A stretch of 64,000 nucleotides of DNA. Origin: Tetracentron sinense. Lineage: Eukaryota > Streptophyta > Magnoliopsida > Trochodendrales > Trochodendraceae. Below the pieces are notes generated by a model. That model was given only the letters and a program-made list of their open reading frames with translations. It was not told where the DNA came from and made no database searches. Shown one piece after another: positions 1,370-64,000 of this stretch (position 1 is the stretch's first letter; the number at the start of each line of letters is the position of its first letter). The stretch lies in contig CM026562.1 in assembly GCA_015143295.1 (NCBI GenBank), positions 16,396,041 to 16,460,040 of the forward strand, written 5' to 3'. Both the position numbers and the translations under genes were made by a program.

Positions 1370-2464
1370 GAGGATCTTTTTGGGGGTTTTGGCTTACCCT
1401 AAACCTAAGGAGAAACCTTGAGAGATTGAGAGAGGGAGGATTTCCAAGAGAGGGCCTTCACCCTCAAGGAGAGATTGAGCGATTGTGAGCCCAAAATCCG
1501 TTCCAAAGGCTTGGATTCACCCAAATCCAAGTCACAAACCTTAGAGATCTCTTCCACCAAGCTCGTGCAAGCTGTAGATGCGTGGATCTTCAACCTTGGA
1601 GTTAGGGAAAGCTTCCACAAGCTTGGATCTCGCTCCCACGACCTCCTAAGGCATTTTCCCCAATCTTTCAAGGTAGAACAAACTACTAACTCTTTGTTAG
1701 GATTCTATTAAGGTTTCTTTGATTCTTTTCCTCAAAACTTGTCATGATATGAGATAGAATATTGTGTATGGAGGTTGGTTGGGCGATGGATGCCAATGGA
1801 TGGTGTGTGGTGTGATGAACAAATGGGGAAGGGCGTTGTTTGCATAACGTACACACTTAGTGTTGGATGAAATGTCTTAAAGAAAAATGCATGAATGAAA
1901 TGACATGAAGAATGGGGTTCGTATGTGAGAGTGTAAATACACTCTCCAAATTGCATGATTAATATTTATGAACATTTACAAAGAAATTAGGGCAAGGGTG
2001 GATGAAAAAGAGTATGGGATACTCTAAGGAATTTAATGATGTGGTCTATTCGTAAGTTCTAGCATGTTCAAGTTTAATTAGTAAAGAAATGAATAGGAAA
2101 CATGGTAGTAGTATGAATATAAATAGCATGTGAATGGAATGGACTACAAGGACTTGTTAGAATTGGATTTTTAAATCAAGCATGTTAATCAAAGGAATGT
2201 CAAGCAAATGGACTTGTTAGGATGTGTCATTAGATGGTAGAATATCCATGAGTTATTGAATGAATGAAATAAAATGCCATAAATCCCTTGTTATTTTTTA
2301 TTTACAATACCATGAAGGTTTACATTTCAAGGATGCATGTACATTAATGAAATCATCACAAGTAGCACGCTAGGAAAATGCATGCATAAAACAAGTTAAT
2401 GAAATATAAGTAAATGAACCTGAACGAGGAATACCACAAGGTAATAAGCAAGCATGAAAAGTAA

Positions 2465-3167: not shown

Positions 3168-3308
3168 ATGTCAGCTGGTACCAAGGATACCCTCAACCCC
3201 GAGTCTTGGGTTGAGGGAGAGTATGTAAAGGAGAGAGAGCCCCCTATTCTGAGGCAGTTGCAAGTAGATAGAGACCTCAATGTGTGGCCATATTTAGATT
3301 ACTGTTGA
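3168..3308 (+). CDS. LTR-borne acidic microprotein, 46 aa
   Basis: An ATG-initiated ORF beginning MSAGT, with the core SWVEGEY at residues 13-19, KEREPP at 21-26 and the end DRDLNVWPYLDYC. No family is recognised. It has no signal peptide or membrane segment and is strongly acidic with a Trp/Tyr-rich tail. Homologous ORFs of 39-51 codons occupy the same LTR position in the other Ty3/gypsy LTRs here; compared with the copies at 13022 and 45724, many codon changes are silent (GTT/GTC, TAT/TAC, ATT/ATC). The start is chosen because ATG and the TTC before it recur in most copies. Expression and function are unknown. Confidence 0.55.
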   Translation: MSAGTKDTLNPESWVEGEYVKEREPPILRQLQVDRDLNVWPYLDYC

Positions 3309-5319: not shown

Positions 5320-6630
5320 CACTAATGGAAGTAGTGCCCTGCCCTGTGGCAAGTTCTGGTGAAGAGGGAGCAGGAGTCCTCGAAGACTGTAGAGTTACTT
5401 TCTTTCCAAAGAAACCAAGCTACCCATGTGAGTAGCATTGGGCCTTCTTCAAAATCATCTTCCCCCAGAAAAACCAAGAACTTACAGGATAAGAAGTTCC
5501 AGAAGGAAAAGGGGAAGACCCAGCTGAGTCCCACTTGGGAGAGGAAATAGCTCCAAACTTTGTGTGCGAAAGGACAATGTAACAGAAGGTGATCTACCAT
5601 CTCCTCAGCATCCAGGCACATGAAATAGTCATTGTCATCTGTCATCCTCTATTCATAAGGTGATTGCATGTGAGTATATTGTCCAGGGTTCCCGCCTTCC
5701 AAATCGTTTTAGAAGGGGAAGGAGTGGCTAGAGGGTGGTAGGAGAGCTTGATAAAGGGATTTCACTGTGATTGACCTTTGGAGGTGCGAGACTATAGGTG
5801 AGTGTCCTCGAGGGAGGGATGGGTTGGTGCTTGTTGAAGTCTAGTTAAGAGGTCTTGGAGGATGTTCAGCTCCCAGTCGTTGAGGTTGTGCCTCAGGCGT
5901 GGGCACCAAACTATTGTTGGGGAGGTACTCAATGTAGGACTCCACTGAAGCGGTCCTCCACTAAAGCGGTCCTATTTGAGGCTAGGAGCCAGATTGGGTA
6001 GAAGGCAGATCTCAAGGTTGTGGGGCCACACCATTTGTCTGTCCAAAAACTGACTTCGTTGACTCGCCCCACACAAAAACTGATGTTAGAGGCCAAGAAG
6101 TCTCAACCTGACATGATGCCTTTCCATAGGCTTGAGTTGTGGGGGCCTAAGACTGCCGAGGGGGTCCATATGGAGGGAGACCAACCTCTAGAGATTATCA
6201 TGATTAGTACTAAACCTCCAAAACCATTTCCCCAGGAGGGCTTCGCTGAAGAAGGAAAGAGTGAGAACGTTTAGAACACCTTGTTCCAGTAGGAGACAAA
6301 CGGTTTGCCAGTCGACAAGGTGACACTTCTGAATCACCACTTTCTCGTTCCAGAGGAAGTTCCTTTGGATAGATTCCAGTATGTGTGCAACGGATGAGGG
6401 AATGGAAAAGAGGGAGAGGAAGTAGGTCAAGAGGTTGTTCAAGACACTTTTGAGAAGGGTAAGCCGGCCCCCTTTGGATAGGAGGTGAGCTTTCCAACCT
6501 ACCAGGTGGCGATGGACTCTGTCAAGGATCGGATCCCAAAGTGACTTAGACTTGAATGAAGCACCGAGAGGAAGGCCCAAATATGTGGCAAGGAAGGATC
6601 CAGTTCTGTAGCTAAGAATGGAGGCCAATA
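5320..6630 (-). pseudogene. LINE ORF2 C-terminal region with zf-RVT-like domain
   Basis: Translated pieces include YLGLPLGASFKSKSLWDP with GWKAHLLSKGGRLTLLKSVL (6628-6188), a block typical of plant LINEs after the RT core, and later HLLLHCPFAHKVWSYFL (5645-5322), the Cys/His zf-RVT motif. This tail is thought to help RNA binding during target-primed reverse transcription. The pieces lie in different frames and are separated by stops, so the gene is dead. Confidence 0.8.
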
Positions 6631-6749
6631 TCGGAAGGTTGGAAACATCTCCAATTCCGAAAAGTTGGCTTTTGGCAAGTTAACCTTAAGGCTCGAGACC
6701 GCCTCAAACATCTAAACAAGCATCAGAGGTGTAGGATTTGCAAGTAGGA

Positions 6750-8069: not shown

Positions 8070-8239
8070 AAAACTCCTCACGTTGATCCAAGAGTTGGAT
8101 GTCCTCTGGGATCCTTTGCTTGTTAGTGTTTAGAAGTCTGAAGACATCCATGTTCCAAGCTTTTAATTTTTAGTTTTAGAGCTTTGAGTTTGAGCTTGAA
8201 ATTTGTGCTTAAGAGGGCTAGCAGGAGGAGTGTTCAGAC

Positions 8240-11056: not shown

Positions 11057-11270
11057 TGTAGCACCCTGGACTTTTCTATATTTAATGAATAGCACTTTCG
11101 TGCCTAATTGATCTTTCTCGTTGTCTAATAAATAAATAAGGGAGAAATTGGAAATTTTGAAATGTCAGAAATGTTACTTTTTGAAAGACGAATCCAACGC
11201 AAGTTGAATCGTCGAAATCGGACGAGTGAGTCAAAAGATATGGTCAAAACAGTCCAGACCTGCAGAGCAC

Positions 11271-11455
11271 CGATCGCTCGGTCCATTCAGCGATCGATCG
11301 GTCCAAAACCGATCGATCGGTGGCTATCGACTGGTCAAAAATTTTGTATGGAAAAATTTTCTAGAGAGCAGACTTTTGACCGGTCGCTCGGTCAGAACAC
11401 CGATCGCTCGATAGGCAACCGATCGATCGGTCATAACCACCGATCGCTCAGTCCC
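11271..11455. repeat. GATCGATC/GATCGCTC palindrome cluster in the solo LTR
   Basis: About seven copies of ACCGATCGCTCGGT or ACCGATCGATCGGT, each a near-perfect or perfect palindrome. They sit upstream of the presumed promoter, where the leftmost LTR has ACGATCGT. The same motif fills the equivalent place at 26071-26236, 33597-33762 and 46190-46375. Confidence 0.75.
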
Positions 11456-12440
11456 CGTGTTTTGCAGAAATTTTTGTAAGGGCATTTTTGTCTTTCGGGT
11501 GTTAAACCCTTACTTCATAAGGCTTGCCCGAGCCTTTAGGGCTTATTCAACATACTTAGAGGGTTTTGAGAGTTAGAGAGAGATGAGAAGAGGATTTGCA
11601 CCTAGGGTTTCCATTGGAGAAGGAATCAAAGGGTTTGACAACCCTAGATCATCCTCAAACTTGGATTGCTTCAAGTTCAAGGCTCAAGCTCGTGGGGGAT
11701 CTCGTTCTCAAGATAGGGCAGCATTCTCCAAGGTATTTCAAGAGGGTTTTCTTCCCCAAACCAAGTCTCCCTCAAGAAAAGGTTTCCTCCTTTCAAGTTG
11801 GAGCTCAAATCAAGGTTCCTACCAATATCAAGCCTTGATCTAAGGTTAGTATACCCTACTAACTTTTCTTAGCAATAACCTAGGTTTTCTATTGTAAATG
11901 GTGATTCTTTATATTATGCTTTCCTTCCCTATGAATTGTATCATCTCAATAAATATAAACAAGATAAGGAAAAAGGATATGGATGTGTATGGAATGTTGA
12001 TTGAGGCGATGGGATGCCAAATGTATGATGTGTTATATGTGTGGTGTGGAAAATGAAAAATGGAGGCTGGACATTTTACAAATAATAAACTTACCCTTAT
12101 GTGATTGGATGGAAAATATGCATTAAAGAAGAAGAAGATGAACTATTAATGGACATCGTATGTTATGTGTTTGATAAATGCCTAACCTATGAAATGATGA
12201 CTTAAAGGAATTGGATGTAAGCCTTATGTAATTGTTCTTGTAAATGATGACTCGACCAAATATTATGTTGATCACCTAAATGTTTGCATGATATGCTATG
12301 AATTTAAATGAAATGTCATATCTCTCTTATTATCCTTATTCCATGATTGTCACAATTGATAGTACAAGAGCACGCATGATAGCATGAACCGAGATTTCAA
12401 GAGCATGTGCATATAATAACCAACAAGAAAATATTGCATG

Positions 12441-12715
12441 TCAAGGAGGTTGGTAGCCCAAGGAGATATGGGTACTAGCCTCTGGCTCACAAGAAAACCC
12501 CTAAAACACATATTGTCAAGGAGGTTGGTAGCCCAGGGACATTCGGGTACTAGCCTCTGACTCATAAGAAAACTAAACAAGTAATAAAAATCACATATTG
12601 TCAAGGAGGTTGGTAGCCCAGGGACATTCGGGTACTAGCCTCTGGCTCACAAGAAAACCACATATATCAAGGAGGTTGGCAGCCCAGGGAGATTCGGGTG
12701 CTAGCCTCTGGCTCA
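12441..12715 (+). repeat. Hairpin minisatellite, four units
   Basis: Each unit has the arm GAGGTTGGTAGCCC and, after about a dozen bases, GGGTACTAGCCTC. In the fourth unit the left arm changes to GAGGTTGGCAGCCC (12672-12685) and the right arm changes to match, GGGTGCTAGCCTC (12696-12708): a T-A pair has become C-G. Units end in CTGGCTCACAAG, shared with the arrays near 27100 and 48600. Confidence 0.85.
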
Positions 12716-13021
12716 CAAGTTACAAGATGCAAGTTTACAAGATGATGACAAGACATTCCTGCATGCACGCATACATGATTTCCACAAGGCATACCGAGAT
12801 ATGGAAACGGGTTTTCAAGCATGAGTTTTATCGGCCTTTTTGCATTCATGCACGTACATCAAGATGATAATATTGCTCCATGGTTAATATTGTTTAATTC
12901 TATGATTTTACTATTGCCTTGAAGTGATGATTGGTATTGTATTACTCTTTGCGTGTTTATTATTGTTATGGTTAGCTAGTAGCTTATACTCGCTGAGTAT
13001 TCCATGCTCAGCCGTACTTTC

Positions 13022-13162
13022 ATGTCGGCAGGTACTGAGGGAGCCCTCGACCTGGAGCCTTGGGTCGAGGAAGAGTACATAGAGGAGAGAGAGCCGTCTA
13101 TTCCACTACAGTCTCAGGCGGATCGAGACCTCGACGTGTGGCCGTACCTCGACTACTGTTGA
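13022..13162 (+). CDS. LTR-borne acidic microprotein, 46 aa
   Basis: Begins MSAGTEGALDLEPWVEEEY, continues with EEREP and ends DRDLDVWPYLDYC, the same length as the copy at 3168. It follows the TTCCA-loop hairpin (12992-13012) by nine bases. This copy looks whole. No known family; no signal or membrane segment. It sits in a solo LTR, so expression would depend on the LTR's own promoter. Confidence 0.6.
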   Translation: MSAGTEGALDLEPWVEEEYIEEREPSIPLQSQADRDLDVWPYLDYC

Positions 13163-13452
13163 GGGGTGAATACAAGAGGGTGCTTATGTATTTTGACATT
13201 TTGATAGGTGGGCCTGTCCACCTTAGACTTAGACATGTTTTGTATATATGTTAACTTGGAATACTATTTTGGAAATCTTAGAAGAAAAGAAAAAGTTAGT
13301 TTACGCTTCCGCATTTATGTTTAGCTTCCGCGCTCTGATTTTCATTGTTTTAGTACTGTAATTATCTTGTTCATTACAGGATGGTTTGGCAGGTACGTAT
13401 AGTCAAGCCTAAAGTATCCCTAAACTCCTAGGGGGTATTTTGGGGCGCGACA

Positions 13453-22076: not shown

Positions 22077-22082
22077 GAAAAG

Positions 22083-25516: not shown

Positions 25517-27056
25517 ATATTGTAGAGCCCCGAATTTTCTACAAGCACTGTTCATGTGCAATCACTGTTCATGTGAGTGAATAGTGCCGAGGGCACTAGT
25601 ATTGGAAAGGGCAAAGGCCTTTATTATAAGTTGGGTTTGGTTAATGAGTGTGAGGGTTCCTCATGGCCTGAGTGTGATGTGAGTTTAGTGTATGAATCAA
25701 GGGAGGTGAGATGTCTTGAAAAAGCAAGCAAAGAGTATAAGACATACTCTAAGCGTTAGATGAATAGTGCTGTGAATAGCGATGGTTCATGGGTTGTGAA
25801 GGTCAAAAGTCTTCTTGTATTGTTGTGGTTGTAGAATAAGCTATAATGAGGGTCTTCACTGTAGCACCCCGGACTTTTCCAACTTTAATGAATAGCATTT
25901 TCGTTACCAATTGGCCTTTCTCATAGTATAATTAATAAATAAGGGAGAAATCAGAAATTCCAAAACTTCAGAAATGTCCCTTTTCGAAGGACGAATCCAA
26001 CGCAAGTTGAATCGTCAAAATCGGACGAACGAGTCAAAAGATATGGTCAAAACAGTCGGGACCAGCAGAGCACCGATCGCTCGGTCCACGAAGCGATCGA
26101 TCGGTCCAAAACCGATCGATCGGAGGCTATCGACTGGTCGAAAAATTTGTATGGGAAAATTTTCCAGAGAGTGAGTTTTTGACCGGTCGCTCGGTCAGAG
26201 TACCGATCGATCGGTCATAACCACCGATCGCTCGGTCTTCGCGTTTTTGCAGAAATTTCATTAAGAGCGTTTTCGTCTTTTGGGGGTTAAACCCTTTCCC
26301 ATAAGGGCTTGCCCGAGCCTTTAGGGCTTCATTCACCTCACTTAGAAGGTTTTGAGAGAGAAGAAGAGAAGAGAAGGGGGATTTACATCTAGGGTTTTCC
26401 ACTTGAGAGAATCAAGGGTTTTAGAACCCTAGAACCGTTCTAAAGGCTTGGATTCTCCAAATCCAACCTCAAGCTCGTGTGGAGTACCTCTTTCAAGCTA
26501 GGGCAGTGTTTCTACATCATCCTCAAGGATTTTTCTTTCCCTTTTCAAGGTTAGTACACTCTTCCTAGTTACTTTGGTAATAACCTAGGATTTTCCTAAG
26601 TAAATATGTGTTGGATCTTCCCCATTGCTCCCTTGTGTTGGTATATGCTAAATCCCTAAAACATAAACAAGATAATACAAACAAATGGTGGAATATATGA
26701 ATGGATGAGGAGTGGAGGTGATTGGATGCCATGTTGTGATGTATTGAATGATGGAAAAATGGTGGAAGGGCATATTACGCATAATGAACACACCCTAAGT
26801 GTTTGATGAAATGTTCGAATGAGAAAATATGAAATAACTAAAGGTAAAAAGGTTGAATACCACATGTTTGATAGAATGCATGAATAAACTAAGATTTGAA
26901 AGCATGAGTCACATAAATGTTCCCCATTTGGCAAGTTGTATACATGTGTTTATTTCGCTTCTTAAATTCTCATGTGAGTTGGGAATTGTTAAAATGCTAT
27001 ATGTCATCATGATTTCACGATTGCTATGCACGAGCACATATGTAGATGGAGGATAT

Positions 27057-27712
27057 TGTCAAGGAGGTTGGTAGCCCCGATTAAGGGTGCTAACCTCTGG
27101 CTCATAAGAAAAGAAATGGTATTGTCAAGGAGGTTAGTAGCCCAGGATTTTGCGGGTGCTGACCTCTGGCTCATAAGAAAGGTATTGTACTCAAGGAGGT
27201 TGGTAGCCCCGGTTAAGGGTGCTAACCTCTGGCTCATAAGAAAAGAAATGGTATTGTCAAGGAGGTTAGTAGCCCAGGATTTTGCGGGTGCTGACCTCTG
27301 GCTCATAAGAAAGGTATTGTACTGTCAAGGAGGTTGGTAGCCCCGGTTAAGGGTGCTAACCTCTGGCTCATAAGAAAAGAAATGGTATTGTCAAGGAGGT
27401 TAGTAGCCCAGGATTTTGCGGGTGCTGACCTCTGGCTCATAAGAAAGGTATTGTACTGTCAAGGGGGTTGGTAGCCCAGGGATTATACGGGTGCTAACCC
27501 CTGGCTCATAAGAAATATATTGTACTGTCAAGGGGGTTGGTAGCCCAGGGATTATACGGGTGCTAGCCCCTGGCTCATAAGAAATATATTGTTGGTAGCC
27601 CAGGGATTACACGGGTGCTAACCCCTGGCTCATAAGAAATATATTGTACTGTCAAGGAGGTTAGTAGCCCAGGGATATGCGGGTGCTAACCTCTGGCTCA
27701 TAAGAAATATTG
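27057..27712 (+). repeat. Hairpin minisatellite of the 5' LTR, about eleven units
   Basis: Early units pair GAGGTT (27064-27069) with AACCTC (27092-27097). Later units have GGGGTTGGTAGCCC (27464-27477) paired with GGGTGCTAACCCC (27489-27501): both arms changed together. Two sub-types, with GTTAAGGG or TTTTGCGGG loops, alternate in the left half as higher-order pairs. Its counterpart is 34579-35245. Confidence 0.88.
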
Positions 27713-27920
27713 AAAGGATAACTCAAAGAGGTTTCGTATGATTCATAGACGTGTTTTGGTTTCATAACAATGATACTTGATAAAACGTTTATGTATGATG
27801 TCGTTAGAAATTGATTATGAATTGTACTCCTTCTATTACTTGTATATGATGTTGTTCGTTATTACCATTGTTGGTTAGGAGTTTGTACTCACTGATTATT
27901 CCACGCTCAGCCGTACTTTC

Positions 27921-28076
27921 ATGTCGGCAGGTACACGAGCTCCTCTTGACATATGTGATCCGGGTCCTTGGATAGAGGAGGACTACGGCGAGGAGGAACC
28001 GTATGAGGATCTAGCAGTCGAGCCTCAGGCGGAGGCGAGAGACTTCGACCATTGGCCCCACGGGGGTGACTATTGA
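27921..28076 (+). CDS. LTR-borne acidic microprotein, 51 aa
   Basis: Begins MSAGTRAPLDICDPGPWIEE, then DYGEEEPYEDL and VEPQAEARDFDHWP, ending GGDY. It is longer than the 46-residue type in the acidic middle and keeps the PW-[VI]-EE core. The 3' LTR copy (35456-35611) differs by very few bases. It lies about 180 bases upstream of the LTR end. Confidence 0.58.
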   Translation: MSAGTRAPLDICDPGPWIEEDYGEEEPYEDLAVEPQAEARDFDHWPHGGDY

Positions 28077-28257
28077 TCGAGATAGTGTTAGGTCTTATGT
28101 ATTTTGATATTTTGATAGGTTGGCCTGTCCACCTTAGACTTAGGCGTGTTTTTTGTACTATATTCTCTTGTTAATTACAGGAGGGTTTGGTAGGTACGAA
28201 GTATCACACCTAAAATATCCCTTAACTCCTAGGGGGTGTTTTGGGGCGTGACAGAGG

Positions 28258-28270
28258 TGGTATCAGAGCT
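28258..28270 (+). other. Primer binding site (initiator-Met tRNA)
   Basis: TGGTATCAGAGCT begins five bases after the 5' LTR end at 28253. It matches the usual complement of the plant initiator methionine tRNA 3' end, the standard primer for minus-strand synthesis in this group. Confidence 0.9.
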
Positions 28271-28590
28271 CTAGGCATTAGAGTCCCTAGAGTCGCTTAG
28301 TACTAGATACCATAATTGAACAAGGCATTAGGTGTAGGAAAGAGTTGTATTCCAAGTATAGACTAACAAGTTAGTCTTAGTCAAAATAGGTTGAACTTCA
28401 ACCAAACTTAGAATCCTACGCTAGGAACGCGACGTGTATGTTATGATATGATGTTGTATATCATGTGTGCATAAATTGTGTTGTGCTTATTAAATATGTC
28501 TGATGAATATGTATTAAGTGAATTGCGAAGTTTTATTAAATGCGTATCCAAGTTAGACTCATGTGGTACTGTCATTCTCAGGATCACATC

Positions 28591-29640
28591 ATGAGACGCG
28601 GTGCTCGGGGTCGCGGATACAATACGAGGGGAAGTGGAAGTGATGCCCCTTCCGGTGACGAGCAACCCGATTTTGCCCAAGCTTTTGCATCTATAGCCGA
28701 GACTTTGGCTATGTTAGCAGCAAGGCCGGTTACTGTTACTCCTTCTACGCCTCCGCCACCTCCAGCACACCATGCTTCAGGATTGGAGGCATTTAGGAGA
28801 TTGCGTCCTCCTACCTTCTTTGGTACTACTGACCCCATGGTCGCCGAGGCATGGGTGATGCAATTGGAAAAGATTTTTAGAGCGCTCCATTGCACGGATG
28901 AACAGAGAGTGGACTGGGCCACCTTCGTGATGGAAGGTGCAGCCGAGCATTGGTGGAGAGCCGCACAGAGACAGAGGGAGTCCACCAAGGCGGGGGAGCT
29001 GTTGATATGGTCGGAATTTTTGGATGTCTTCTATAAACAGTATTTTCCGGCGGCTGTCAAAGAACAAAAGGAGATTGAATTCATGACTCTTGAACAAGGA
29101 GAGTTGAGTGTGGCCGATTATGAGGCTACCTTCGTGGAGTTGTCGAGATTCGCACCTCACCTAATTGCATCGGAGCATATGCGAGTCAGGAAATTTGAGC
29201 GGGGATTGAAACCCTCCATTAGAGACAGGGTCTCGATGTTCCAGGTGGCTACCTGGGGAGAGGTTGTGAGCAAGGCGAAGCTTGCCGAGAAGAATTTGGA
29301 AGAATTCTTCAAGAAAAGGGATGTGGCTCGAGGCCAATCGAGTAGTTCGGGGTCGGCAGAGAAGAGGGCTAGGGCAGCCCCATATTAGGCATCCAAGCCG
29401 ATACGGTCACAGAGGCCTCCCTTGACATCACAGGTATCTCGGCCTACCACTACACCGGTACCTTGTCCCACACTTTCACAGGCCACCCGATATGTTCCAC
29501 CTTCATCCTCATCAGCATTTGAGGAGTGCTCCTATTGTGGTCGGAGTCACCGGATTGGTGAATGTCGGAGGATTTCGGGTGGGTGCTTTCACTGTGGGGA
29601 TGTGAATCACATGGTCAGGGATTGCCCACGCATGCAGTTG
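28591..29640 (+). pseudogene. gag: gag region of the complete Ty3/gypsy element
   Basis: The start MRRGARGRGYNTRGS is chosen because the minus-strand copy begins likewise near 54938. The capsid-type retrotransposon gag block follows (RLRPPTFFGTTDPMVAEAW, EQGELSVADYEATFVELSRF, VRKFERGLKPSIRD). Two Cys/His motifs come at the end, one around CSYCGRSHRIGEC and a CCHC knuckle CFHCGDVNHMVRDC (about 29584-29628). Gag would form the particle and bind RNA. The reading frame is not whole. Confidence 0.88.
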
Positions 29641-33384: not shown

Positions 33385-34578
33385 TGTAGCACCCCAGACT
33401 TTTCCAACTTTAATGAATAGCATTTTCGTTACCAATTGGCCTTTCTCATAGTATAATTAATAAATAAGGGAGAAATCGGAAATTCCGAAACTTCAGAAAT
33501 GTCCGTTTTCGAAGGACGAATCCAACGCAAGTTGAATCGTCAAAATCGGACGAACGAATCAAAAGATATGGTCAAAACAGTCGGGACCAGCAGAGCACCG
33601 ATCGCTCGGTCCACGGAGCGATCGATCGGTCCAAAACCGATCAATCGGAGACTATCGACTGGTCGAAAAATCTGTACGGGGAAATTTTCCAGAGAGTGAG
33701 TTTTTGACCGGTCGCTCGGTCAGAGTACCGATCGATCGGTCATAACCACCGATCGCTCGGTCTTCGCGTTTTTGCAGAAATTTCATTAAGGGCGTTTTCG
33801 TCTTTTGGGGGTTAAACCCTTTCCCATAAGGGCTTGCCTGAGCCTTTAGGGCTTCATTCATCTCACTTAGAAGGTTTTGAGAGAGAAGAAGAGAAGAGAA
33901 GGGGGATTTACATCTAGGGTTTTCCACTTGAGAGAATCAAGGGTTTTAGAACCCTAGAACCGTTCTAAAGGCTTGGATTCTCCAAATCCAACCTCAAGCT
34001 CGTGTGGAGTATCTCTTTCAAGCTAGGGCAGCGTTTCTACATCATCCTCAAGGATTTTGTTTTCCCTTTTCAAGGTTAGTACACTCTTCCTAGTTACTTT
34101 GGTAATAACCTAGGATTTTCCTAAGTAAATATGTGTTGGATCTTCCCCATTGCTCCCTTGTGTTGGTATATGCTAAATCCCTAAAACATAAACAAGATAA
34201 TACAAACAAAGGGTGGAATGTATGAATGGATGAGGAGTGGAGGCGATTGGATGCCATGTTGTGATGTATTGAATGATGGAAAAATGGTGGAAGGGCATAT
34301 TACGCATAATGAACACACCCCAAGTGTTTGATGAAATGTTCGAATGAGAAAATATGAAATAACTAAAGGTAAAAAGGTTGAATACTACATGTTTGATAGA
34401 ATGCATGAATAAACTAAGATTTGAAAGCATGAGTCACATAAATGTTCCCCATTTGGCAAGTTGTATACATGTGTTTATTTCGCTTCTTAAATTCTCATGT
34501 GAGTTGGGAATTGTTAAAATGCTATATGTCATCATGATTTCACGATTGCTATGCACGAGCACATATGTAGATGGTGGA

Positions 34579-35245
34579 TATTGTCAAGGAGGTTGGTAGC
34601 CCCGGTTAAGGGTGCTAACCTCTGGCTCATAAGAAAAGAAATGGTATTGTCAAGGAGGTTATTAGCCCAGGATTTTGCGGGTGCTGACCTCTGGCTCATA
34701 AGAAAGGTATTGTACTCAAGGAGGTTGGTAGCCCCGGTTAAGGGTGCTAACCTCTGGCTCATAAGAAAAGAAATGGTATTGTCAAGGAGGTTAGTAGGCC
34801 AGGATTTTGCGGGTGCTGACCTCTGGCTCATAAGAAAGGTATTGTACTGTCAAGGAGGTTGGTAGCCCCGGTTAAGGGTGCTAACCTCTGGCTCATAAGA
34901 AAAGAAATGGTATTGTCAAGGAGGTTAGTAGCCCAGGATTTTGCGGGTGCTGACCTCTGGCTCATACGAAAGGTATTGTACTGTCAAGGGGGTTGGTAGC
35001 CCAGGGATTATACGGGTGCTAACCCCTGGCTCATAAGAAATATGTTGTACTGTCAAGGGGGTTGGTAACCCAGGGATTATACGGGTGCTAGCCCTGGCTC
35101 ATAAGAAATATATTGTACTGTCAAGGGGGTTGGTAGCCCAGGGATTACACGGGTGCTAGCCCCTCGCTCATAAGAAATATATTGTATTGTCAAGGAGGTT
35201 GGTAGCCCAGGGATATGCGGGTGCTAACCTCTGGCTCATAAGAAA
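34579..35245 (+). repeat. Hairpin minisatellite of the 3' LTR
   Basis: Same order of unit sub-types as the 5' LTR array: alternating GTTAAGGG and TTTTGCGGG units, then GGGGTT/AACCCC units, then a final GAGGTT/AACCTC unit. Parallel order shows that the array was copied during the last transposition cycle and has changed little since. Confidence 0.85.
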
Positions 35246-35455
35246 TATTGAAATGATAACTCAAAGAGGTTTCGTATGATTCATAGACGTGTTTTGGTTT
35301 GATAACAAGTATACTTGATAAAACGTTTATGTATGATGTCGTTAGAAATTGATTAGGAATTGTACTCCTATTACTTGTATATGATGTTGTTCGTTATTAC
35401 CATTGTTGGTTAGGAGTTTGTACTCGCTGAGTATTCCACGCTCAGCCGTACTTTC

Positions 35456-35611
35456 ATGTCGGCAGGTACACAAGCTCCTCTTGACATATGTGATCCGGGT
35501 CCTTGGATAGAGGAGGACTACGGTGAGGAGGAACCGTATGAGGATCTAGCAGTCGAGCCTCAGGCGGAGGCGAGAGACTTAGACCATTGGCCCCACGGGG
35601 GTGACTATTGA
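35456..35611 (+). CDS. LTR-borne acidic microprotein, 51 aa (3' LTR copy)
   Basis: Same reading as the 5' LTR copy: MSAGT start, CDPGPWIEEDYGEEEP, AEARDLDHWP, ending GGDY. One visible residue difference (ARDLDHW against ARDFDHW) restores the Leu seen in other families. Confidence 0.58.
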   Translation: MSAGTQAPLDICDPGPWIEEDYGEEEPYEDLAVEPQAEARDLDHWPHGGDY

Positions 35612-36735
35612 TCGAGATAGTGTTGGGTCTTATGTATTTTGATATTTTGATAGGTGGGCCTGTCCACCTTAGACTTAGGCGTGTTTTGTATTTATGTTAA
35701 CTTGGAATACTATATTTTGGATCATTATAAAGAAAGGAAAAATTTAGTTACGCTTCCGCATTTATATTTAGCTTCTGCGCTCTGATTATCATTTTTTTTT
35801 TGTACTGTATTCTCTTGTTAATTACAGGAGGGTTTGGCAGGTACGAAGTATCACACCTAAAGTATCCCTTAACTCCTAGGGGGTGTTTTGGGGCGTGACA
35901 TTCACCTTGAGTTAACTGGGTAGGAGTATGTGTAGCTCAGAAACACTGAGTATAAGAATACTCTAAGTGTTTTAAAGTCAAGGGTATGAAATACCCTAAG
36001 TGTTATGTTATTAGGGCCACATGAATCTTGATGTTCATGGGGGCTTTTGCTTTCCGTGGATATGTTAGAAATTATGTTAGGGTCCTACAAACCTTTGGCA
36101 ATGGTTTAAGGGTGTTAAAAAAAGAGTGTGAAACACTCTAAGTGATCAAAGTTCAAGAGAAAAAAGATGACTTCACATACCCTCGACTTTAGGGAGACAT
36201 AGTTTTGTCACCGCTTATCAGAAACGAGTGATTCTCAAATTTTTTGGAAGGTATTGGAACCCTTTCGAGGTTCATGTTTATCATTTTCCAGAATTTGAGT
36301 CGGGGATGAGTTAAAAGTTGGATTTCCGAATATCGGATTTGCTGCAAATCTAGGCTGCTGAAATTCGATTACTGACTAGTCAGCTTTAGGGGCAATTTTG
36401 TCCGTGAATAAAGAAGAATTAGAAATTTTGTAAAACATGAAAGTTATTCCCCTTCAAAATATGAGTCCAACGCAAGTTGAATCATCAAAATTCGATAAGT
36501 GAGTCAAAAGTTATGGCCAAAATACCAAAATGGGAAAAACCTAGAAAATTTTTGTCCTAGATACGATCATTCGTAAACGACCCACGAACGATTGTAGCGA
36601 CGCTACGAACGATCGTAAAGCCCCAAAATTGTTGTAAACCCACTGGGAAACCTAAAGTAGATCGTAGGAAGCCTACGAATGATCTTAGGCACGCGAACCA
36701 AAATTTTTGTGCGAGTTTTCTTCGGGGTTTCAACC

Positions 36736-39051: not shown

Positions 39052-39180
39052 ATGTCGGCAGGTTCATTCGACATTGTATCCCAGGGCATTAGATCTAGAT
39101 GGATTATTAAGGGCAGGAGCCTTCTTGGGGATGTTCTTGAGGATGATAGGGGTTTGACATATGACCATATGGTTGAGTGA
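39052..39180 (+). CDS. LTR microprotein relative, strongly diverged
   Basis: Begins MSAGSFDIVSQG at the usual place, directly after the TTCCA/TTCTA-loop hairpin (39021-39041). It then loses the PWVEEEY core and the DRDLDxWP tail. It is probably a degenerate copy in an old LTR and is listed for completeness. Confidence 0.3.
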   Translation: MSAGSFDIVSQGIRSRWIIKGRSLLGDVLEDDRGLTYDHMVE

Positions 39181-41298: not shown

Positions 41299-41949
41299 TG
41301 TAGAACCCCGGATATATATGACATATATTAAAGCCTTAAGATTTTTTTTTTAGTTTATGAGTGTTGAGATGAAGGATTAAGAGTACAAAATACTCTTAAG
41401 TATTAATGAAGGTTATGCCTTAGCATGACCCTCAACTTTAAGAAGCTTTAGTTTTATCACCGCTCATCGTTATCAAGTGATTCTTGAATATTTGGAAAAT
41501 TTTTTAAATCCTCTTCAAGGTTTATGTTGATCACTTTTCCAGATTTTGAGTCGGGGTCGAGTCAAAAATCCGATTTCCAAAGTCGAGACTGTTGAAAATC
41601 TGGACTGTTGAAACCTATTTTTGGACCAGTTGAATTTAGAGTCATTTTTGATAAAGTAAAACTCCAAATTTGGAGTTTTACAAAACATAAAAGTTGTTCC
41701 CCTTCGAAAGAAGAATCCAATGCTAGTTGAATCGTCAAAATCAGACCACCGATTCAAAAGTTATGGCCGATTTACCAAAGCACGTTTTTGCAGAAAAACT
41801 CGCTCGAGCGAGATCCAAATCCGCTCAAGCGAGATTGACCAAAACCGAGTTTTTGAGGCTAGGGAGTAACTTGCTCAAGCGAGATGGAAACCCGCTTGAG
41901 TGAGATTGCCCAAAAATGTTTTGTTTTAGGTTTTTCACTAACCTAACAC

Positions 41950-41957
41950 TATATATA
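41950..41957 (+). promoter_or_regulatory. TATA box of the solo LTR at 41299
   Basis: TATATATA in CACTATATATACCCAATT, about 45 bases after the palindrome cluster and 250 bases before the donor-like site. Confidence 0.5.
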
Positions 41958-42804
41958 CCCAATTTTTCGGGGGTCCAAGGTTCCTAACGCTTAGAGAGTG
42001 ACTTTTTGAGAGAAGAAGAGAGAAAGGAGAGGAAAGGTTTGGGGATTTCCAAGAGGGGTTTTGTGGTGATCAAAGAGAGTCCAAATCAATCTTGTATCAT
42101 CCTCTTAAGCAAGGATCTTCATCCTTAAGTGGTGGTGTCTTCTTCCTCAAGTTGGGATTCTTGTTCAAAGGTTTCTTCAAACTAAGAAGGGATCCTCACA
42201 AGGTTAGTACACCCTTACTAACTAGCTTAGTAATAACTAGGGTTTTTCCTTTAAAAATGATGATTTCTTCTTGTGTTCTTTCCTTCTCTTGAAATGTATG
42301 AATTTCCCTAATTAAAAACAAGATAAGAATGTGAATGGTATGAGATGGAAGAATGGATGGTGGATGTGGCGATTGGATGCCGTGGAATGTGATGTATGAA
42401 GTGTGATGGATAAATGGTGGAAGGGCATTTTATACATAATAAACACACTCTTGTATTGTTGAAAGATATGCATTAAGGAACTTGAATATAAGAACCATGA
42501 ATGTGTTGCTTGCTAAGTGTTCGACAAAATGTCTAAACAAGAATAAATGGGGTTTAATGGAGATTATGAAAAATACTAATCATGTAATTCTTTTTCTAAC
42601 CCTAAATTTGATATAATATTGTCACCATTGCTCACATATCACATGATTATAAGTAGGGTTCATATGTTATGTGTTTTCCCCTTTCTATCAATTATGCTAG
42701 TACGATTGCCACAAATTGTCGCACACAAACACGCATGCATCCATGAACCGATGTTTTCAAAGTACACATATCTCAATGACAACAACAAAAGTGATTCATG
42801 AATC

Positions 42805-43075
42805 GAATGATAAAGCCGGACATCGGGCCGGTCAAGGGTAGGGCATATCTCCGGATATGTCATACCTAGCTCACAAGTAAACAAGCAGGTGGATAAAGCC
42901 AGACATCGGGTCAGTCAAGGGTAGGGCATATCGCAAGATATATCATACCTGGCTCACAAGAAAACAAGTTGATCAAGCCGGACATAGGGCCTGTTAAGGA
43001 TGTTAGTGTACCCCTCTTTCGATATCTATATATATGTATTCTTATTCACGGGGCACTAATATCTGGCTCACAAGA
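42805..43075 (+). repeat. Hairpin minisatellite, three units
   Basis: Two units share GATAAAGCCGGACATCGGGC and GTAGGGCATATC-x-GATATGTCATACC, whose arms GCATATC and GATATG(T)C pair. The third unit has a different hairpin, TTAGTGTACCCC with GGGGCACTAA. Units end in CTGGCTCACAAG, the ending shared with other families' arrays. Confidence 0.7.
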
Positions 43076-43439
43076 AAACAAGGCAAGTCAAGTCAAGTCA
43101 AGTCATGGTAAGTCAACCAAGAACACAAGACACGTGATTCCAAGCAAGACATGATACATACGTGATTCTTACGAACGAGACCCAAGACCACACATTGTTT
43201 TCAAGTATGACAAGCAAGATTGAAAACACATGAACACACACCCAAACAACTGTTTTCAAGATAAGACAAGACATGATTTTTGAAGTATGATTTTATCGGG
43301 TTTTTGCATTCATGCATGCATATGATGATCTTATATTGCTTTACTGATTGTGCAAATCAATGTTCTCGTGTACATGTTATTACTACTATTTAGCCAGTAG
43401 CTTGTACTCGTTGAGTATTCCATACTCAGCCGGACTTTC

Positions 43440-43589
43440 ATGTCGGTAGGTACTCAGTTTGACATCTGCGCTCCTGATCCTTGGATCGAGGAGGATTATG
43501 GTGAGGAGGAGCCTCACGTGGATCCTATGGTAGAGCCTCAAGTGGAGGCGAGAGACTTAGATAGATGGCTATACCCGGACGAGTGCTGA
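43440..43589 (+). CDS. LTR-borne acidic microprotein, 49 aa
   Basis: Begins MSVGTQFDICAPDPWIEEDY, then GEEEPHVDP and VEPQVEARDLDRW, ending PDEC. It is intermediate between the 46- and 51-residue types. It follows the hairpin GTTGAGTA-TTCCA-TACTCAGC by nine bases, where the wobble of other copies is a true T-A pair. Confidence 0.58.
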   Translation: MSVGTQFDICAPDPWIEEDYGEEEPHVDPMVEPQVEARDLDRWLYPDEC

Positions 43590-43869
43590 GAGAGAGACAG
43601 TTATGATTTTGTATTTTGATAGGTGGGCATGTCCACCTTTGCTTTGATGTTTGTGATTGTATATGTAAACTTGGGATACAGGTTGCTTTATTTTGAAAAG
43701 AAAAAGTTGATCATGAGCTTCCACACTTTTTATGAGCTTCCGCACTCTGATCATTGTCATTATTGAATTAGTTCACCTTGTTCATTGTAGGATGGTTTGA
43801 CAGGCTAAGTATAGTCTCGACCAAAGTATCCCTTAACTCCTAGGGGGTATTTTGTTGTGTGACATTTAA

Positions 43870-45723: not shown

Positions 45724-45864
45724 TCAACAGTAGTCGAGGTATGGCCACACGTCCAAATCCCTATCCTCCTGAGACTGCATCGGGATAGGTGGCTCCCTCT
45801 CTTCTACGTACTCTTCCTCGACCCAAGGCTTAGGGTCAAGGACATCCACGGTACCTGCCGACAT
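45724..45864 (-). CDS. LTR-borne acidic microprotein, 46 aa
   Basis: Minus strand: MSAGTVDVLDPKPWVEEEY, EEREPPIP, then DRDLDVWPYLDYC at the end. Same length as the copies at 3168 and 13022, with many silent differences from them (AGA/AGG, CCG/CCA, ATT/ATC). It sits at the far side of a nested LTR from the rest of its LTR. Confidence 0.6.
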   Translation of the reverse strand: MSAGTVDVLDPKPWVEEEYVEEREPPIPMQSQEDRDLDVWPYLDYC

Positions 45865-47309
45865 AAAAGTACGGCTAAGCATGGAATACTCAGCGAGTAC
45901 AAGCTACGAGCTAACCATAGCAATAACAAAACCCCAACAACAGTGAACACAATACAAAATATCGATTTAAAGCAATACTTGTAGAGCCCCGGACCTTTCA
46001 CATTTAATGCATGACACTTTCGTCACCATTTTGCCTTTAAAGAGGTATAATTAATAAATAAGGAAGAAATTGGAAATTCCGAAAGGTCAGAAATGTTCCT
46101 TTTCGAAGTACGAACCCAACGCAAGTTGAATCGTCAAAATCCGACGAGCGAGTCAAAAGATATGGCCAAAACAGTCTGGACCTGCAGGCAACCGATCGCT
46201 CGGTCCATAAAGCGATCCATCGATCCAAAACCGATCGATCGGTAGCTATCGACTGGTCAAGATTTTTGTATGGGGAAATTTTCCAGAGAGTTGATTTTTG
46301 GTCGAGAGCTCGGTCAACACACCGATCGCTCGGTAGGCAACCGATCGATCGGTCATTAACACCGATCGCTCGGTACTCGCGTTTTTGCAGAAATTTCAGT
46401 AAGGGTATTATGGTCTTTTGGTCGGTTTACTCTTACCTTAAGAGTTTAACCCGAGCCTTTAGGGCTTCATTTCGACACTTAGAGAGATTGGGAGATAAGA
46501 AGAGAGGAGAGGGAGATTCCTAAACCTAGGGTTTCCATTTTGGAGAGAAATCAAGGGGTTTGTGAACCCACACTCAACTCAAGCCCATTTTTCTTCAAGA
46601 TCAAGGCACAAACTCGTGAGGAGCATCTCCTCAAGCTAGGGCAGCAACTCACAGTCGTTTTTGGAAGGGGATTTCTTCCTCACTTGATCAAGGTCGGTAC
46701 TTCTTACTACCCTCCTAGTTATAGCTTCCCTTTTTCCTTTGTTTCTCCTTGTTTTCCTTCACTTATATATGTGTTATGAGATTGGTGGTATGAATGGTGA
46801 ATGGAGATGGATGTTGGCGAATGGATGTCGTGTGGATGATGTGATGAACGAATGGGAAAGGGCATTGTACCAACAATGAACATACAAGTGTGATGTGAGC
46901 ATAACCCACCTAGAAAAGCATGATCTAGGTTTAAGTGAATAATGAACACACCCCATGTTTGATGAAATGCCAAGGTGAACAAAATAAATGATAAATTAAG
47001 GGAACCCATGCTTAATTGCTCTTGAAATTTGTTAGGGTTCATGATAGTGTGTTTCTTACATTTCTTAAAATGCGTAGATTATTACTCACTTAAATTGTTA
47101 TATGCTATGCTTTGTGAATTACCCCAAATTGCCATATTTAATTCCAAATGCAAGTATGCACACGATCTCACGAGCACGCATGAAATGACGTGATTTACCG
47201 ATGTTTTAAGTATGGGACGTAGAGGTGGGGCATATCCTAAGATATGTTTCACTTCGCTTTTGACAAGGGCAAGACAATCATGCATTTCATAGGGAAAGGT
47301 CTCCCATCC

Positions 47310-47847: not shown

Positions 47848-47967
47848 ATGTTGGCAGGTTCTGAGGGAGCTGCGGCTCCATTTGATGTTTGTGCTCCTGG
47901 TCCATGGGTGGAGGAGGAGTACGTCGAGGAGCCTTTTGAGGAACCTCCCGTAGAGGGTTATCAGTAG
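47848..47967 (+). CDS. LTR-borne acidic microprotein, 39 aa
   Basis: Begins MLAGSEGAAAPFDVCAPGPW, then VEEEYVEEPFEEPPVEGYQ and stop. It keeps the PFD-x-C and PWVEEEY core but lacks the DRDLDxWPYLDYC tail, making it the shortest family member here. Confidence 0.5.
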   Translation: MLAGSEGAAAPFDVCAPGPWVEEEYVEEPFEEPPVEGYQ

Positions 47968-55258: not shown

Positions 55259-57598
55259 AGTCGGGCCCCAAAATATCCCCTAGGAGTTAAAGGATACTTT
55301 AGGTGGGACTATACATACCTGTCAAACCATCCTATAATGAACAAGGGTAAACATGATATAATACAATAATAATCAGAGTGCGGAAACTATATCATCAATG
55401 CGGAAACGAGAACTAACTTTTTCTTTTCTCATAAACTATCTTAGTATTCCAAGTTTATGTACAAAACATAATCAAAGTAAAGGTGGACATGCCCATCTAT
55501 CAAAATACAAAAAGGAACTCTCTCACACTCTCCTCTCAACAGTAGTCGAGGTATGGCCACACGTCCAAATCTTTATCCTCCTGAGACTGCATCGAGATAG
55601 GTGGCTCCCTCTCTTCTACGTATTCTTCCTCGACCCAAGGCTTAGGGTCAAGAACACCCACAGTACCTGCCGACATAAAAGTATGGCTGAGATTGAATAC
55701 TCAGCGAGTACAAGCTACTAGCTAACCATAGCAATAACAAAACCCCAACAACAGTGAACACAATACAAAATATCGATTTAAAGCAATACTACCAGCATAA
55801 GATAAATAGTATTGAACATGAAGCAATATAAATATCTTGACATGCGTGCATGAATGCGAAAGCTCCGGCAAAACTCAAGACTCGGAAACCTGTTTCATCT
55901 TTCGGTCTTACTTGTGAAAATCATGCATGCGTGTCTCATCTTGTTAAAAATCATATGTCTTGCTTGTTCTTGATTTACTTGACTTGTATACTTGTGAGCC
56001 AGAAGTTAGCACCCGCACATCCCTAGGCTACCAGCCTCATTGACATTTCCTTCTCTTGTGAGCCAAAGGCTAGCACCCTCAAATTGGGCTACCAACCTCC
56101 TTGACATGTTCTTGTTTCCTTTTCTTGTGAGCCAGAGGCTAGCACCCTCCACTTGGGCTACCAATGTCCTTGACATGTACTTGTTTCCTTTTCTTGTAAG
56201 CTAGAGGCTAACACCCTCCACTTAGGCTACCAACCTCCTTGACACGTACTAACTTCATTTTCTTGTGAGCTAGAGGCTAGTGGGCTACCAACCTCCTTGA
56301 CATTTCATTTAAATACTCGTACTTGAAAACATCGGTTCATGCATGCATGCGTGGGTGTGTGTAACACTTGTAGTATCATGATGACAATATGACAAGAAGA
56401 GTAGTGTACAGCATTTTGATCCTTAGTATAAACAGGTGCTTATTTAGATAATCTATATGGCATTTAATCAAGGTTATGAGTTTGAAGAAAAGCTACACAT
56501 ATTCATGCTTTCATATTCTTCATTAATTGGATATTTTCTCATTTAGTCCTTTAGTCAAACACATAGCATGCAACATTTCATAGTCGTTTCATTTACCCTT
56601 TTTAGTGCATATTTTTCACCAAATCATCAAGGTACGTTCATTATTTGTAAAATGCCCATCCACCATTTTCATTTCACACACCACACAACATCCATACGGC
56701 GTTCAATCGCCTAAATTAACATCTCATCCACACATTCATACCCTTTACTTTATCTTGTTTATATTTTGGGAAGATGATATATTTCAAAATGAGGAAAAAC
56801 ATACGATCAAGAGTCCTCATACACAATAGAAAAACCTAGGTTATTATTAAGGGAGTTAGTAGGTGTACAAACCTTAAGGATTTTCCCTAAATCTTGAAGA
56901 AAAACCCCCTTGATTGTGAGTTCTTGAGTAGGAATCTCCTAGCTTGACGGAGGATGATCCTTGCTTGAAGTCTTCAAGCTTTTGAGCTCCCTTTGATCTT
57001 GCTCCAAAAATCCCTCTTAGCAAATCCCCAAGTCTCTCCTTCTCTTCTTCTTCTTTCTCAATCTCTCTTAGGTCTCCTTTAGGTTTTTGGGTAAAGCATA
57101 ACCCCCCAAGAGGCCCCCTATTTATTGGCCAAAGGTAGAAACCCTAAAAATTTCAAAATAAAATTTTAGGTTCACGAACTACGATCGGTCGTAGGTTATC
57201 TACGATCGATCGTAAATTCTTCTACGATCGATCGTAAGTTTCTACGATCGATCCTAATCGTTACAGAGAATTTGTCTAATTTCTTGAGATTCTACAATCA
57301 ATTGTAATTTCTACGATCGATCGTATCTCACTTACAATCATCCGTAGGGTCTGTACAATCTTTCGTAACCGTTACAAAAATTTTCCAGATTTTCCTGTTT
57401 TCGTATTTCGGCCATAACTTTTGACTCACTCGTCGGATTTTGACGATTCAACTTGCGTTAGATTTGTCATTCGAAGGGGAACATTTCTAGTATTTCAAAA
57501 TTTTCAATTTCTTCTTTATTTATTGATTAGACTATGTGGAAGGCCAATTGGCTATACGGATACTATTCATTAGGTACAAAAAGTTTCGGGTCACTACA
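55259..57598 (-). repeat. 5' LTR of the minus-strand element (also abuts a partial second unit)
   Basis: About 2.3 kb; palindromes at 57180-57370, TATA-like AATAAATAGG near 57119-57127 (minus), hairpin units 55995-56300, hairpin near 55686 and the small ORF at 55536-55676. On its right it is followed by a polypurine tract and integrase-end sequence, so it also serves as 3' LTR of the unit at 57599. Confidence 0.85.
55536..55676 (-). CDS. LTR-borne acidic microprotein, 46 aa
   Basis: Minus strand: MSAGTVGVLDPKPWVEEEY, EEREPPIS, DKDLDVWPYLDYC. A few residue changes from the 3' LTR copy at 45724, at least one of them conservative (DRD to DKD). Confidence 0.55.
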   Translation of the reverse strand: MSAGTVGVLDPKPWVEEEYVEEREPPISMQSQEDKDLDVWPYLDYC

Positions 57599-63218: not shown

Positions 63219-64000
63219 TGTCGCGACCCAAAATACCCCCTAGGAGTTAAGGGTACCTTGACTCGTGACCGCCGTATCATACCTCCAGTATGACACATAA
63301 GGCACACGTGGAAACCTGTCAGAGTACCTGAATATACATAGCGGAAACGAAATACAATGCACAGCGGAAAATAAAATACTAAACATAGCGGAAGTAAAAA
63401 GAATACTCCTATCACTTGGCTCAAGTAAGAACCAACAAGTATACATGTGTGAGAAACCCAAAAGTGGAGTGGACAAACCCCACACTCACATAACAAAAGA
63501 CACAAGTTCTAAGTCGGTCGATCAACAGAAATCGAAGTCACGACTCCTATCTAAAGCACCATCATCATGATAGTGATCCATGGAAGGCTCCGGGTCACGG
63601 TACTCTTCCTCAACCCAAGGTTCTTCGCCACACAAATCGAATGGAACCCGAGCACCTGCCGATCATAACAATATCGACTGAGCATGGAATACTCAGTGTA
63701 TACAAACTAATAACAATAAAGCAGTTAGGCATGGAGCATACGAGACATGGAGAATGAAATCCGTAAAATCCTTAAAGTATGGAAACCGTGAAAACACGTG
63801 TGAGATAATATTCGAAACAAAAACTGTAACCGTGTGAGTCAATCGATAATCATAGCCTTATGAGTTCTTGTGAGTTCATGGAGTTACTTAGAGTCATTGT
63901 GATCCGTGGAGACATAGAGCATAGAGCAATACCGTAGAGCATTTCCATAGAGCATAACCTTAGAGATCTTAGAGCATTTTATTGTGATCCGTGGAGCTTG
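63219..64000 (-). mobile_element. Start of another minus-strand Ty3/gypsy LTR, running out of the window
   Basis: TGTCGCGACCCAAAATACCC is the complement of the LTR end GGGTCGCGACA seen at 48266. Further in are the hairpin (about 63677-63698, with the outer G-C pair replaced by A-T) and a microprotein-like reading (about 63663-63522) with PFDLCGEEPWVEEEY and a RDFDFC end. The remainder is outside the window, so it cannot be told whether it is a solo LTR or part of a full element. Confidence 0.85.
63522..63663 (-). CDS. LTR microprotein-like reading in the rightmost LTR
   Basis: Minus strand reading with PFDLCGEEPWVEEEY, DPEPSMDHYH and the end RDFDFC. It is the most diverged member that still keeps the PWVEEEY core, and it lies after the conserved hairpin. 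The start codon is uncertain here. Confidence 0.4.

What the first reader, a model, noticed from the sequence alone, without database searches (positions are those of the whole stretch)
3168..3308. A conserved acidic microprotein ORF inside Ty3/gypsy LTRs
Nine LTR copies contain at the same place an ORF of 39-51 codons; the rightmost LTR has the same reading with an uncertain start, and one of the nine (39052) is degenerate. Positions: 3168, 13022, 27921, 35456, 39052, 43440, 47848, and on the minus strand 45864, 55676 and about 63663. The core is PWVEEEY, the start MSAGT, the tail DRDLDxWPYLDYC. Between families many codon differences are silent (GTT/GTC, TAT/TAC, AGA/AGG, CCC/CCG/CCA), while flanking LTR sequence is hard to align. 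That pattern points to selection on a peptide. LTRs rarely encode anything, and I know of no described counterpart.
Basis: partly seen in the sequence, partly recalled or inferred. Interest (0 to 1): 0.92.

Follow-up and report, generated by a model that had tools for sequence, protein, structure and literature searches.

The report
Microprotein gene hidden in retrotransposon LTRs
The long terminal repeats of a group of plant jumping genes, normally thought of as pure control DNA, carry a tiny acidic protein gene that evolution has kept intact, apparently as a miniature gene with its own promoter and intron.

Summary
Ten LTR copies of Tekay/Del-type Ty3/gypsy chromoviruses carry a homologous ORF starting 330-450 nt before the LTR end; 7 of 10 are intact, G is truncated, H's ATG is out of frame, D is degenerate. 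The coding signal is strong: omega 0.11 across six families (p about 5e-19); 0 of 5000 column shuffles as good. Codon positions 1 and 2 exceed LTR background identity in 7 of 8 pairs; position 3 lies near or below it.

Best model: each LTR, solo LTRs included, is a one-intron microgene whose leader splices either to the microprotein or to gag-pol.

No transcript or peptide data were available: splicing, translation and function are inferred; the host is unidentified and genome-wide dN/dS untested. Closest counterparts found are accessory proteins of animal retroelements (MMTV Sag/Naf, Cer1 CERV).

The parts
3168..3308 (+). microprotein ORF, copy A (46 codons)
13022..13162 (+). microprotein ORF, copy B (46 codons), in a solo LTR
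27921..28076 (+). microprotein ORF, copy C5 (51 codons), 5' LTR of a full-length element
35456..35611 (+). microprotein ORF, copy C3 (51 codons), 3' LTR of the same element
39052..39180 (+). degenerate copy D (ATG block kept, peptide lost)
43440..43589 (+). microprotein ORF, copy E (49 codons), in a solo LTR
47848..47967 (+). copy G, 39 codons, lacks the conserved tail; solo LTR
45724..45864 (-). microprotein ORF, copy F1 (46 codons), probably the 3' LTR of element F
55536..55676 (-). microprotein ORF, copy F2 (46 codons), LTR directly before primer site and gag of element F
63522..63662 (-). copy H, frame open but the ATG is out of frame by one base
11057..13452 (+). solo LTR B, TSD TGCAC
25860..28253 (+). 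5' LTR of element C (element TSD TTCAC)
33385..35900 (+). 3' LTR of element C
41299..43864 (+). solo LTR E, TSD TTTAA
45980..48266 (+). solo LTR G, TSD ATACT, inserted into LTR F1
55259..57598 (-). LTR F2 of element F
11842..11852 (+). conserved predicted 5' splice site AAG|GTtaGTA, LTR B
26547..26557 (+). predicted 5' splice site, LTR C5 (C3 at 34072)
42200..42210 (+). predicted 5' splice site, LTR E
46690..46700 (+). predicted 5' splice site, LTR G
56865..56875 (-). predicted 5' splice site, LTR F2 (F1 at 49418, truncated F-type LTR fragment at 59781)
1669..1674 (+). variant of the same donor (CAAG|GT) in LTR A
12974..12975 (+). predicted 3' splice site A1 (TTAG) of LTR B, 46 nt before the ORF ATG; same place in the eight copies examined
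35359..35455 (+). C3: AG-free tract (55 nt), A1 acceptor, hairpin GCTGAG..CTCAGC before the ATG
28258..28269 (+). primer binding site TGGTATCAGAGC, element C (F: 55243-55254, minus)
28577..28593 (+). acceptor-like CTCAG, nine bases, then the gag ATG (28591); same arrangement in F (gag ATG 54938, minus)

Best explanation
The LTRs of these Tekay/Del chromoviruses contain a small intron-bearing gene. Transcription starts in the 5' part of the LTR. A leader exon of some 200-300 nt ends at a conserved donor (AAG|GTtaGTA). Splicing over a 1.1-1.3 kb LTR intron to an acceptor 40-47 nt before the ATG makes the acidic 39-51 aa microprotein the first ORF of a short LTR mRNA. Splicing of the same donor to the acceptor just before gag gives the gag-pol mRNA; unspliced RNA is the genome. 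The peptide is acidic, has several aromatic residues and is probably disordered. I think it acts in trans on the element's own expression or genomic RNA (transcription, escape from silencing, or export of unspliced RNA) and is selected because active lineages need it. Shown: the ORFs, their homology, purifying selection, LTR boundaries. Suggested by sequence: donor, acceptors, ATG-poor leader. Inferred: transcription start, splicing, translation, trans function.
For: Selection: omega 0.110 over six families, 2dlnL 79.4, p 5e-19; A,B,F1 alone 0.138 (p 1e-7); C3,E,G alone 0.027 (p 5e-9, long branches, flat likelihood up to about 0.25). Shuffles of columns: protein score 0 of 5000 in each of four sets; the other frames carry 5-12 stops. 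Codon position identities, e.g. B-F2 0.85/0.89/0.70 against LTR background 0.68. The ORF window is the top coding window of the LTR in 6 of 8 pairs. A donor pattern drawn from the five-LTR alignment has 8 matches in 64 kb, both strands, all 8 at this LTR place. AG-free runs before A1 of 35-110 nt in 8 of 8 copies examined; null median 17 with the same freedom of choice, p about 1e-5 for six copies taken as independent. No ATG in the 220 nt before the donor in B, C5, E, G, F2 (shuffle mean 6.4 in total, 0 of 500 as low); 42-66 ATGs in the presumed intron. The microprotein ATG is the first ATG after A1 in C5, E and F2, and in A and B an in-frame ATG precedes it; 14 (C) and 19 (F) ATGs, the microprotein's included, lie between A1 and the gag ATG. 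Acceptor-like site a few bases before the gag ATG in C and F and in a distant element on L002.
Against: No RNA or protein data. LTR A has one ATG in the 220 nt before its donor, and its donor departs from the pattern. No TATA-like box was matched in G and F1. The 220-nt length was set after seeing the ATG positions; ATGs lie beyond it at -262 (B), -237 (F1), -227 (F2) and -283 (G), and 7.2% of 220-nt LTR windows have none. A YTRAY branch-point match before A1 was seen in only 4 of 8 copies. The ATG context is weak (T at -3 and +4 in A, B, C5, E, F2). In G the first ATG after A1 is out of frame. In the pair C5-B positions 1 and 2 do not exceed background, and C5-B and C5-G rank the ORF third in the coding scan. 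A related plant LTR end (L002) has an A1-like acceptor but no listed ORF resembling the peptide, so the peptide seems not universal in the clade. The AlphaFold model is poor (pLDDT 69, pTM 0.20) and gives no fold-based function.
Confidence: 0.6

Rival explanations
1. The peptide is a cis-acting conserved-peptide uORF: its nascent chain stalls ribosomes and lowers or conditions gag-pol translation on the same mRNA.
For: Short ORF with weak ATG context upstream of gag; length typical of plant conserved-peptide uORFs (recalled).
Against: 14 and 19 ATGs lie between A1 and the gag ATG, the microprotein's included, so gag is hardly reachable on that mRNA. The PWVEEEY part is strongly conserved while the C-terminus and length vary between families; stalling peptides usually keep the C-terminus (recalled).
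Confidence: 0.2
2. The true protein is larger: the ORF is the last exon of a spliced gene, with the 3' splice site at ATGTCGGCAG|GT, and MSAGT is not the real start.
For: GGCAGGT resembles an acceptor and is present in 7 of 9 aligned copies.
Against: In the frame needed, the triplet before the donor is TAA in B and F2 (read). AGs lie about 20 and 34 nt upstream of that site, unlike A1. Copy A lacks the AG.
Confidence: 0.08
3. No peptide is made; the conservation is of DNA or RNA signals (hairpins, splice sites, LTR end) and the open frame is incidental.
For: Two hairpins flank the ORF and the ATG block is conserved at nucleotide level.
Against: Phase-specific conservation with omega 0.11 and third positions near or below background identity; hairpin covariation is weak.
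Confidence: 0.05
4. The ORF is a captured host gene fragment carried passively.
For: Retroelements do capture host sequence (general knowledge).
Against: No Pfam match for four copies and no PDB match; selection between families needs a use inside the element. Plant proteomes could not be searched.
Confidence: 0.04

Closest known systems
MMTV Sag and Naf (LTR-encoded proteins of a betaretrovirus)
   Same: proteins encoded inside the LTR (U3); Sag can be driven by an LTR promoter of its own, P2 (PMC9412291, passages)
   Different: animal retrovirus; Sag is an immune-acting superantigen and larger (size recalled); no sequence comparison was made here
CERV of Cer1, an LTR retrotransposon of C. 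elegans
   Same: element-specific protein made from a spliced mRNA, needed for export of the element's unspliced genomic RNA (PMC10309623, part of the abstract and passages)
   Different: 517 aa from five exons sharing gag's frame in part; here 39-51 aa inside the LTR, function unknown
BARE and EVADE subgenomic gag RNAs
   Same: plant LTR elements that use splicing to divide RNA between tasks (PMC3735527 passages; PMC12786077 passages)
   Different: the introns described lie in gag-pol, not in the LTR, and yield a short gag mRNA, not an extra protein
Bongo (Tekay) chromoviruses of Beta vulgaris
   Same: same clade; most listed LTRs are 2.6-3.0 kb, near the 2.3-2.6 kb here (PMC3605345 passages)

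Membership tests
Tekay/Del chromovirus | chromodomain at the integrase C-terminus | tested here: met
   PF00385 Chromo just above the cut-off in C (25.4 vs 25.1 bits) and at it in an F-type copy (25.1)
Tekay/Del chromovirus | Tekay chromodomain motif EEXTWEXE | tested here: met
   EEATWERE at the pol end of C and of the F-type copy; motif from PMC3350952 passages
LTR retrotransposon | TG..CA LTR ends, 5-bp TSD, primer site | tested here: met
   TG..CA and TSDs for C, B, E, G; F2 ends in CT; primer site at 28258 and 55243(-)
Conserved-peptide uORF | sits upstream of the main ORF on the same mRNA, main ORF reachable | tested here: inconclusive
   14 and 19 ATGs from A1 to gag, microprotein's included; transcripts unknown
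Conserved-peptide uORF | conserved C-terminus at fixed distance from the stop (criterion recalled) | tested here: not met
   C-termini differ between families: WPYLDYC, WPHGGDY, WLYPDEC; G lacks the tail
LTR-encoded accessory protein (as MMTV Sag/Naf) | ORF wholly inside the LTR under coding selection | tested here: met
LTR-encoded accessory protein (as MMTV Sag/Naf) | protein shown to be made and to act | not testable with these tools
   no RNA or protein data

The most novel reading that the evidence does not exclude
Plant LTRs of this clade are autonomous, intron-containing microprotein genes. Every intact LTR, including solo LTRs scattered through the genome, can supply in trans an acidic disordered factor that governs the element's expression, with one leader exon switching by alternative 3' splice sites between regulator and gag-pol.
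Probability: 0.35. Interest if true: 0.88.

Novelty: new variant of a known kind. Interest (0 to 1): 0.74.

Why it matters
LTRs are treated as non-coding control DNA, and solo LTRs as inert scars. If each carries an expressed, selected gene, then solo LTRs stay players in trans, annotation pipelines miss a protein family, and how chromoviruses balance regulator, gag-pol and genome RNA becomes directly testable by RNA-seq and ribosome profiling.

Tried and rejected
Relatives elsewhere: IMG/VR scans with a pol piece, the LTR-end pattern, the peptide alignment, a pol alignment and the hairpin pattern gave nothing usable (5 of 8 scans). In one search, 2 stretches and, 63 stretches matched a pattern but none was confirmed. 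Genome contigs gave two plant-like contigs inside bacterial assemblies (2 of 80 pattern matches confirmed): L001 holds pol and under 0.5 kb after it, L002 a related LTR end without the peptide. A search of those two assemblies with the peptide alignment gave one chance-level match (E 0.34).

Exon 1 as a coding exon joined to the ORF was considered and dropped: the join frame holds TAA in B and F2. A second acceptor-like site 69-85 nt before the LTR end, with CTGAT 44-46 nt upstream in 6 of the 8 copies matched (H, the ninth asked for, was not matched), is noted but not placed in the model. Hairpin-only explanations were weakened by the pair counts. Fold search was not run because the model is poor. 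The AG-free significance was first computed without allowing for choice of site and redone with it. Two further reviews searched for terms gave nothing used here.

Full report
What was checked. Ten LTR copies hold the region, named here A (3168), B (13022), C5 (27921), C3 (35456), D (39052), E (43440), G (47848), F1 (45864, minus), F2 (55676, minus) and H (63663, minus). Seven of ten (A, B, C5, C3, E, F1, F2) are intact over the full length. G stops early and lacks the tail, H has its ATG out of frame, D is degenerate. tblastn of nine of the peptides against the window (E up to 1) gave, apart from these, two weak hits, E 0.22 and 0.41.

The elements. C is a full-length element: LTRs 25860-28253 and 33385-35900, target duplication TTCAC, primer site at 28258. 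B, E and G are solo LTRs with duplications TGCAC, TTTAA and ATACT; G sits inside F1, probably the 3' LTR of element F. Gag, reverse transcriptase, integrase zinc-binding and chromodomain models match in the pieces, and the pol end reads EEATWERE, the Tekay motif EEXTWEXE (PMC3350952, passages). These are Tekay/Del chromoviruses of an unidentified plant; that the host is a plant is inferred from this clade.

Selection on the peptide. Nei-Gojobori omega is 0.08-0.15 in the computable comparisons between A, B and F, 0.09-0.17 among C, E and G, and 0.12-0.32 across the two groups where computable. Of 36 pairs, 12 are saturated at synonymous sites. Pairs with the decayed copy H give 0.26-1.08; LTR pairs of one element give 0.17 (F1-F2) and 0.52 (C5-C3, three changes). 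The disjoint sets A,B,F1 and C3,E,G give 0.138 and 0.027, each significant; the second has saturated branches and a flat profile. In four sets, 0 of 5000 shuffles of alignment columns reached the observed protein score; the synonymous share was reached by 0, 9, 12 and 0 of 5000; the two other frames contain 5-12 stops. Third codon positions lie below whole-LTR background identity in 6 of 8 pairs and slightly above in two (B-F2 0.70 vs 0.68, A-B 0.61 vs 0.53). First and second positions lie above it in 7 of 8; C5-B (0.66, 0.61 vs 0.67) is the exception. In a scan of all frames and both strands of the LTRs (windows with frame-breaking gaps left out), the ORF is the top window in 6 of 8 pairs and third in C5-B and C5-G. 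Gaps between intact copies inside the ORF are multiples of three, judged by eye.

Anatomy around it. Five families share a 5' splice-site-like block AAG|GTtaGTA some 690-900 nt into the LTR. A pattern drawn from that alignment has 8 matches in 64 kb, both strands, all at this LTR place, one of them in a truncated F-type fragment; A has a variant, and in D none was located. TATATATA in E and AATAAATA in F2 lie about 250 nt before the donor; G and F1 gave no TATA-like match. The 220 nt before the donor hold no ATG in B, C5, E, G and F2; dinucleotide shuffles expect 6.4 in total and 0 of 500 were as low. A has one. I chose the length 220 after seeing the positions, and 7.2% of 220-nt LTR windows on either strand also have none. 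The 350 nt after the donor hold 20-24 ATGs, and the presumed intron 42-66 (that script took the intron one base too long).

Before the ORF, 40-47 nt from the ATG, each of the eight copies examined (A, B, C3, D, E, G, F2, H) has a TTAG or CTAG preceded by 35-110 nt without AG, as before 3' splice sites. A YTRAY branch-point match was seen in only 4 of 8. With a null that allows the same freedom of choice the median is 17 nt, and p is about 1e-5 for six copies drawn as independent, which they are not fully. Then follow a hairpin whose loop begins with TATTC in all nine aligned copies, and the ATG. A second hairpin lies after the stop. Covariation in both is weak, so I rest nothing on them.

The gag ATG follows a few bases after CTCAG (C) or TTCAG (F), and after CTATAG in the distant element of L002. 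With splicing from the leader donor to that site, gag is the first ATG in C and, counting the leader as 220 nt, in F; L002's leader was not identified. With splicing to A1, the microprotein is the first ATG in C5, E and F2; in A and B an in-frame ATG adds six residues; in G an 11-codon frame comes first. From A1 to the gag ATG there are 14 (C) and 19 (F) ATGs, the microprotein's included, so the A1 mRNA can hardly be the gag mRNA. This is why I favour a separate microprotein mRNA over a uORF.

The peptide. 39-51 aa; computed pI 4.05 in five of six families, which may be the program's floor (recalled), and 4.40 in A; 9-15 acidic residues. No Pfam match for the four copies scanned, no PDB match for the alignment. 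AlphaFold: mean pLDDT 69, pTM 0.20, two short helices in the C-terminal part. Acidic residues mixed with W, Y and L recall acidic activation domains, which is a lead from memory, not a test.

Against known systems. A review states that plant LTR elements generally lack introns, with Ogre and EVADE among the exceptions (PMC12786077, passages). BARE divides RNA pools by promoter choice and splicing (PMC3735527, passages). MMTV encodes Sag and Naf in its LTR (PMC9412291, passages). Cer1 makes CERV from a spliced mRNA, needed to export genomic RNA (PMC10309623, part of the abstract and passages). A peptidogenomic survey of grape reports 47 non-conventional peptides in LTR-retrotransposon regions (PMC9070638, passages); its tables were not seen, so an earlier sighting of such a peptide is not excluded. 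Nine library searches for an LTR ORF, microprotein, uORF or LTR intron listed no such case: 20 of 34 listed; 20 of 66; 11; 4; 6; none found; 7; 10 of 47; 6. I saw titles and abstract starts, and passages of the papers named.

Verdict. A real, selected microprotein gene inside plant LTRs, probably with its own intron. Function is inferred. What it works like: an LTR- or splice-encoded accessory factor. It is not shown to be a member of any known accessory-protein family.

Noticed in passing
27054-27707: Tandem array of about 68-bp units (also seen as 134-bp units) inside the presumed LTR intron of element C; similar arrays in the F-type LTRs by self-comparison.
   Followed up: no
L001 and L002: Plant-like Tekay pol sequence in assemblies named Streptomyces clavifer JCM 5059 (BMWJ01000031.1) and Labilibacter sediminis CG51 (NZ_VCHY01000050.1), probably contamination.
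   Followed up: partly
LTR 3' parts, e.g. 35690-35780, 55320-55400 (-); L002 about 1165-1180: Motif TTCCGC recurs before the LTR end in several copies and also occurs in the distant LTR of L002; role unknown.
   Followed up: no
69-85 nt before the LTR ends (e.g. about 13379, 35827): Second acceptor-like site, mostly TTACAG|GATGG, with CTGAT 44-46 nt upstream in 6 of 8 copies matched.
   Followed up: partly
55259-59867 (-): Rearranged F-type stretch: LTR fragment, pol end, LTR, primer site and gag in series, suggesting recombination between elements.
   Followed up: no
6188-8865 (-) and 20216-22077 (+): ORFs that look like a LINE reverse transcriptase and a MULE-type transposase (by eye, not searched).
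   Followed up: no
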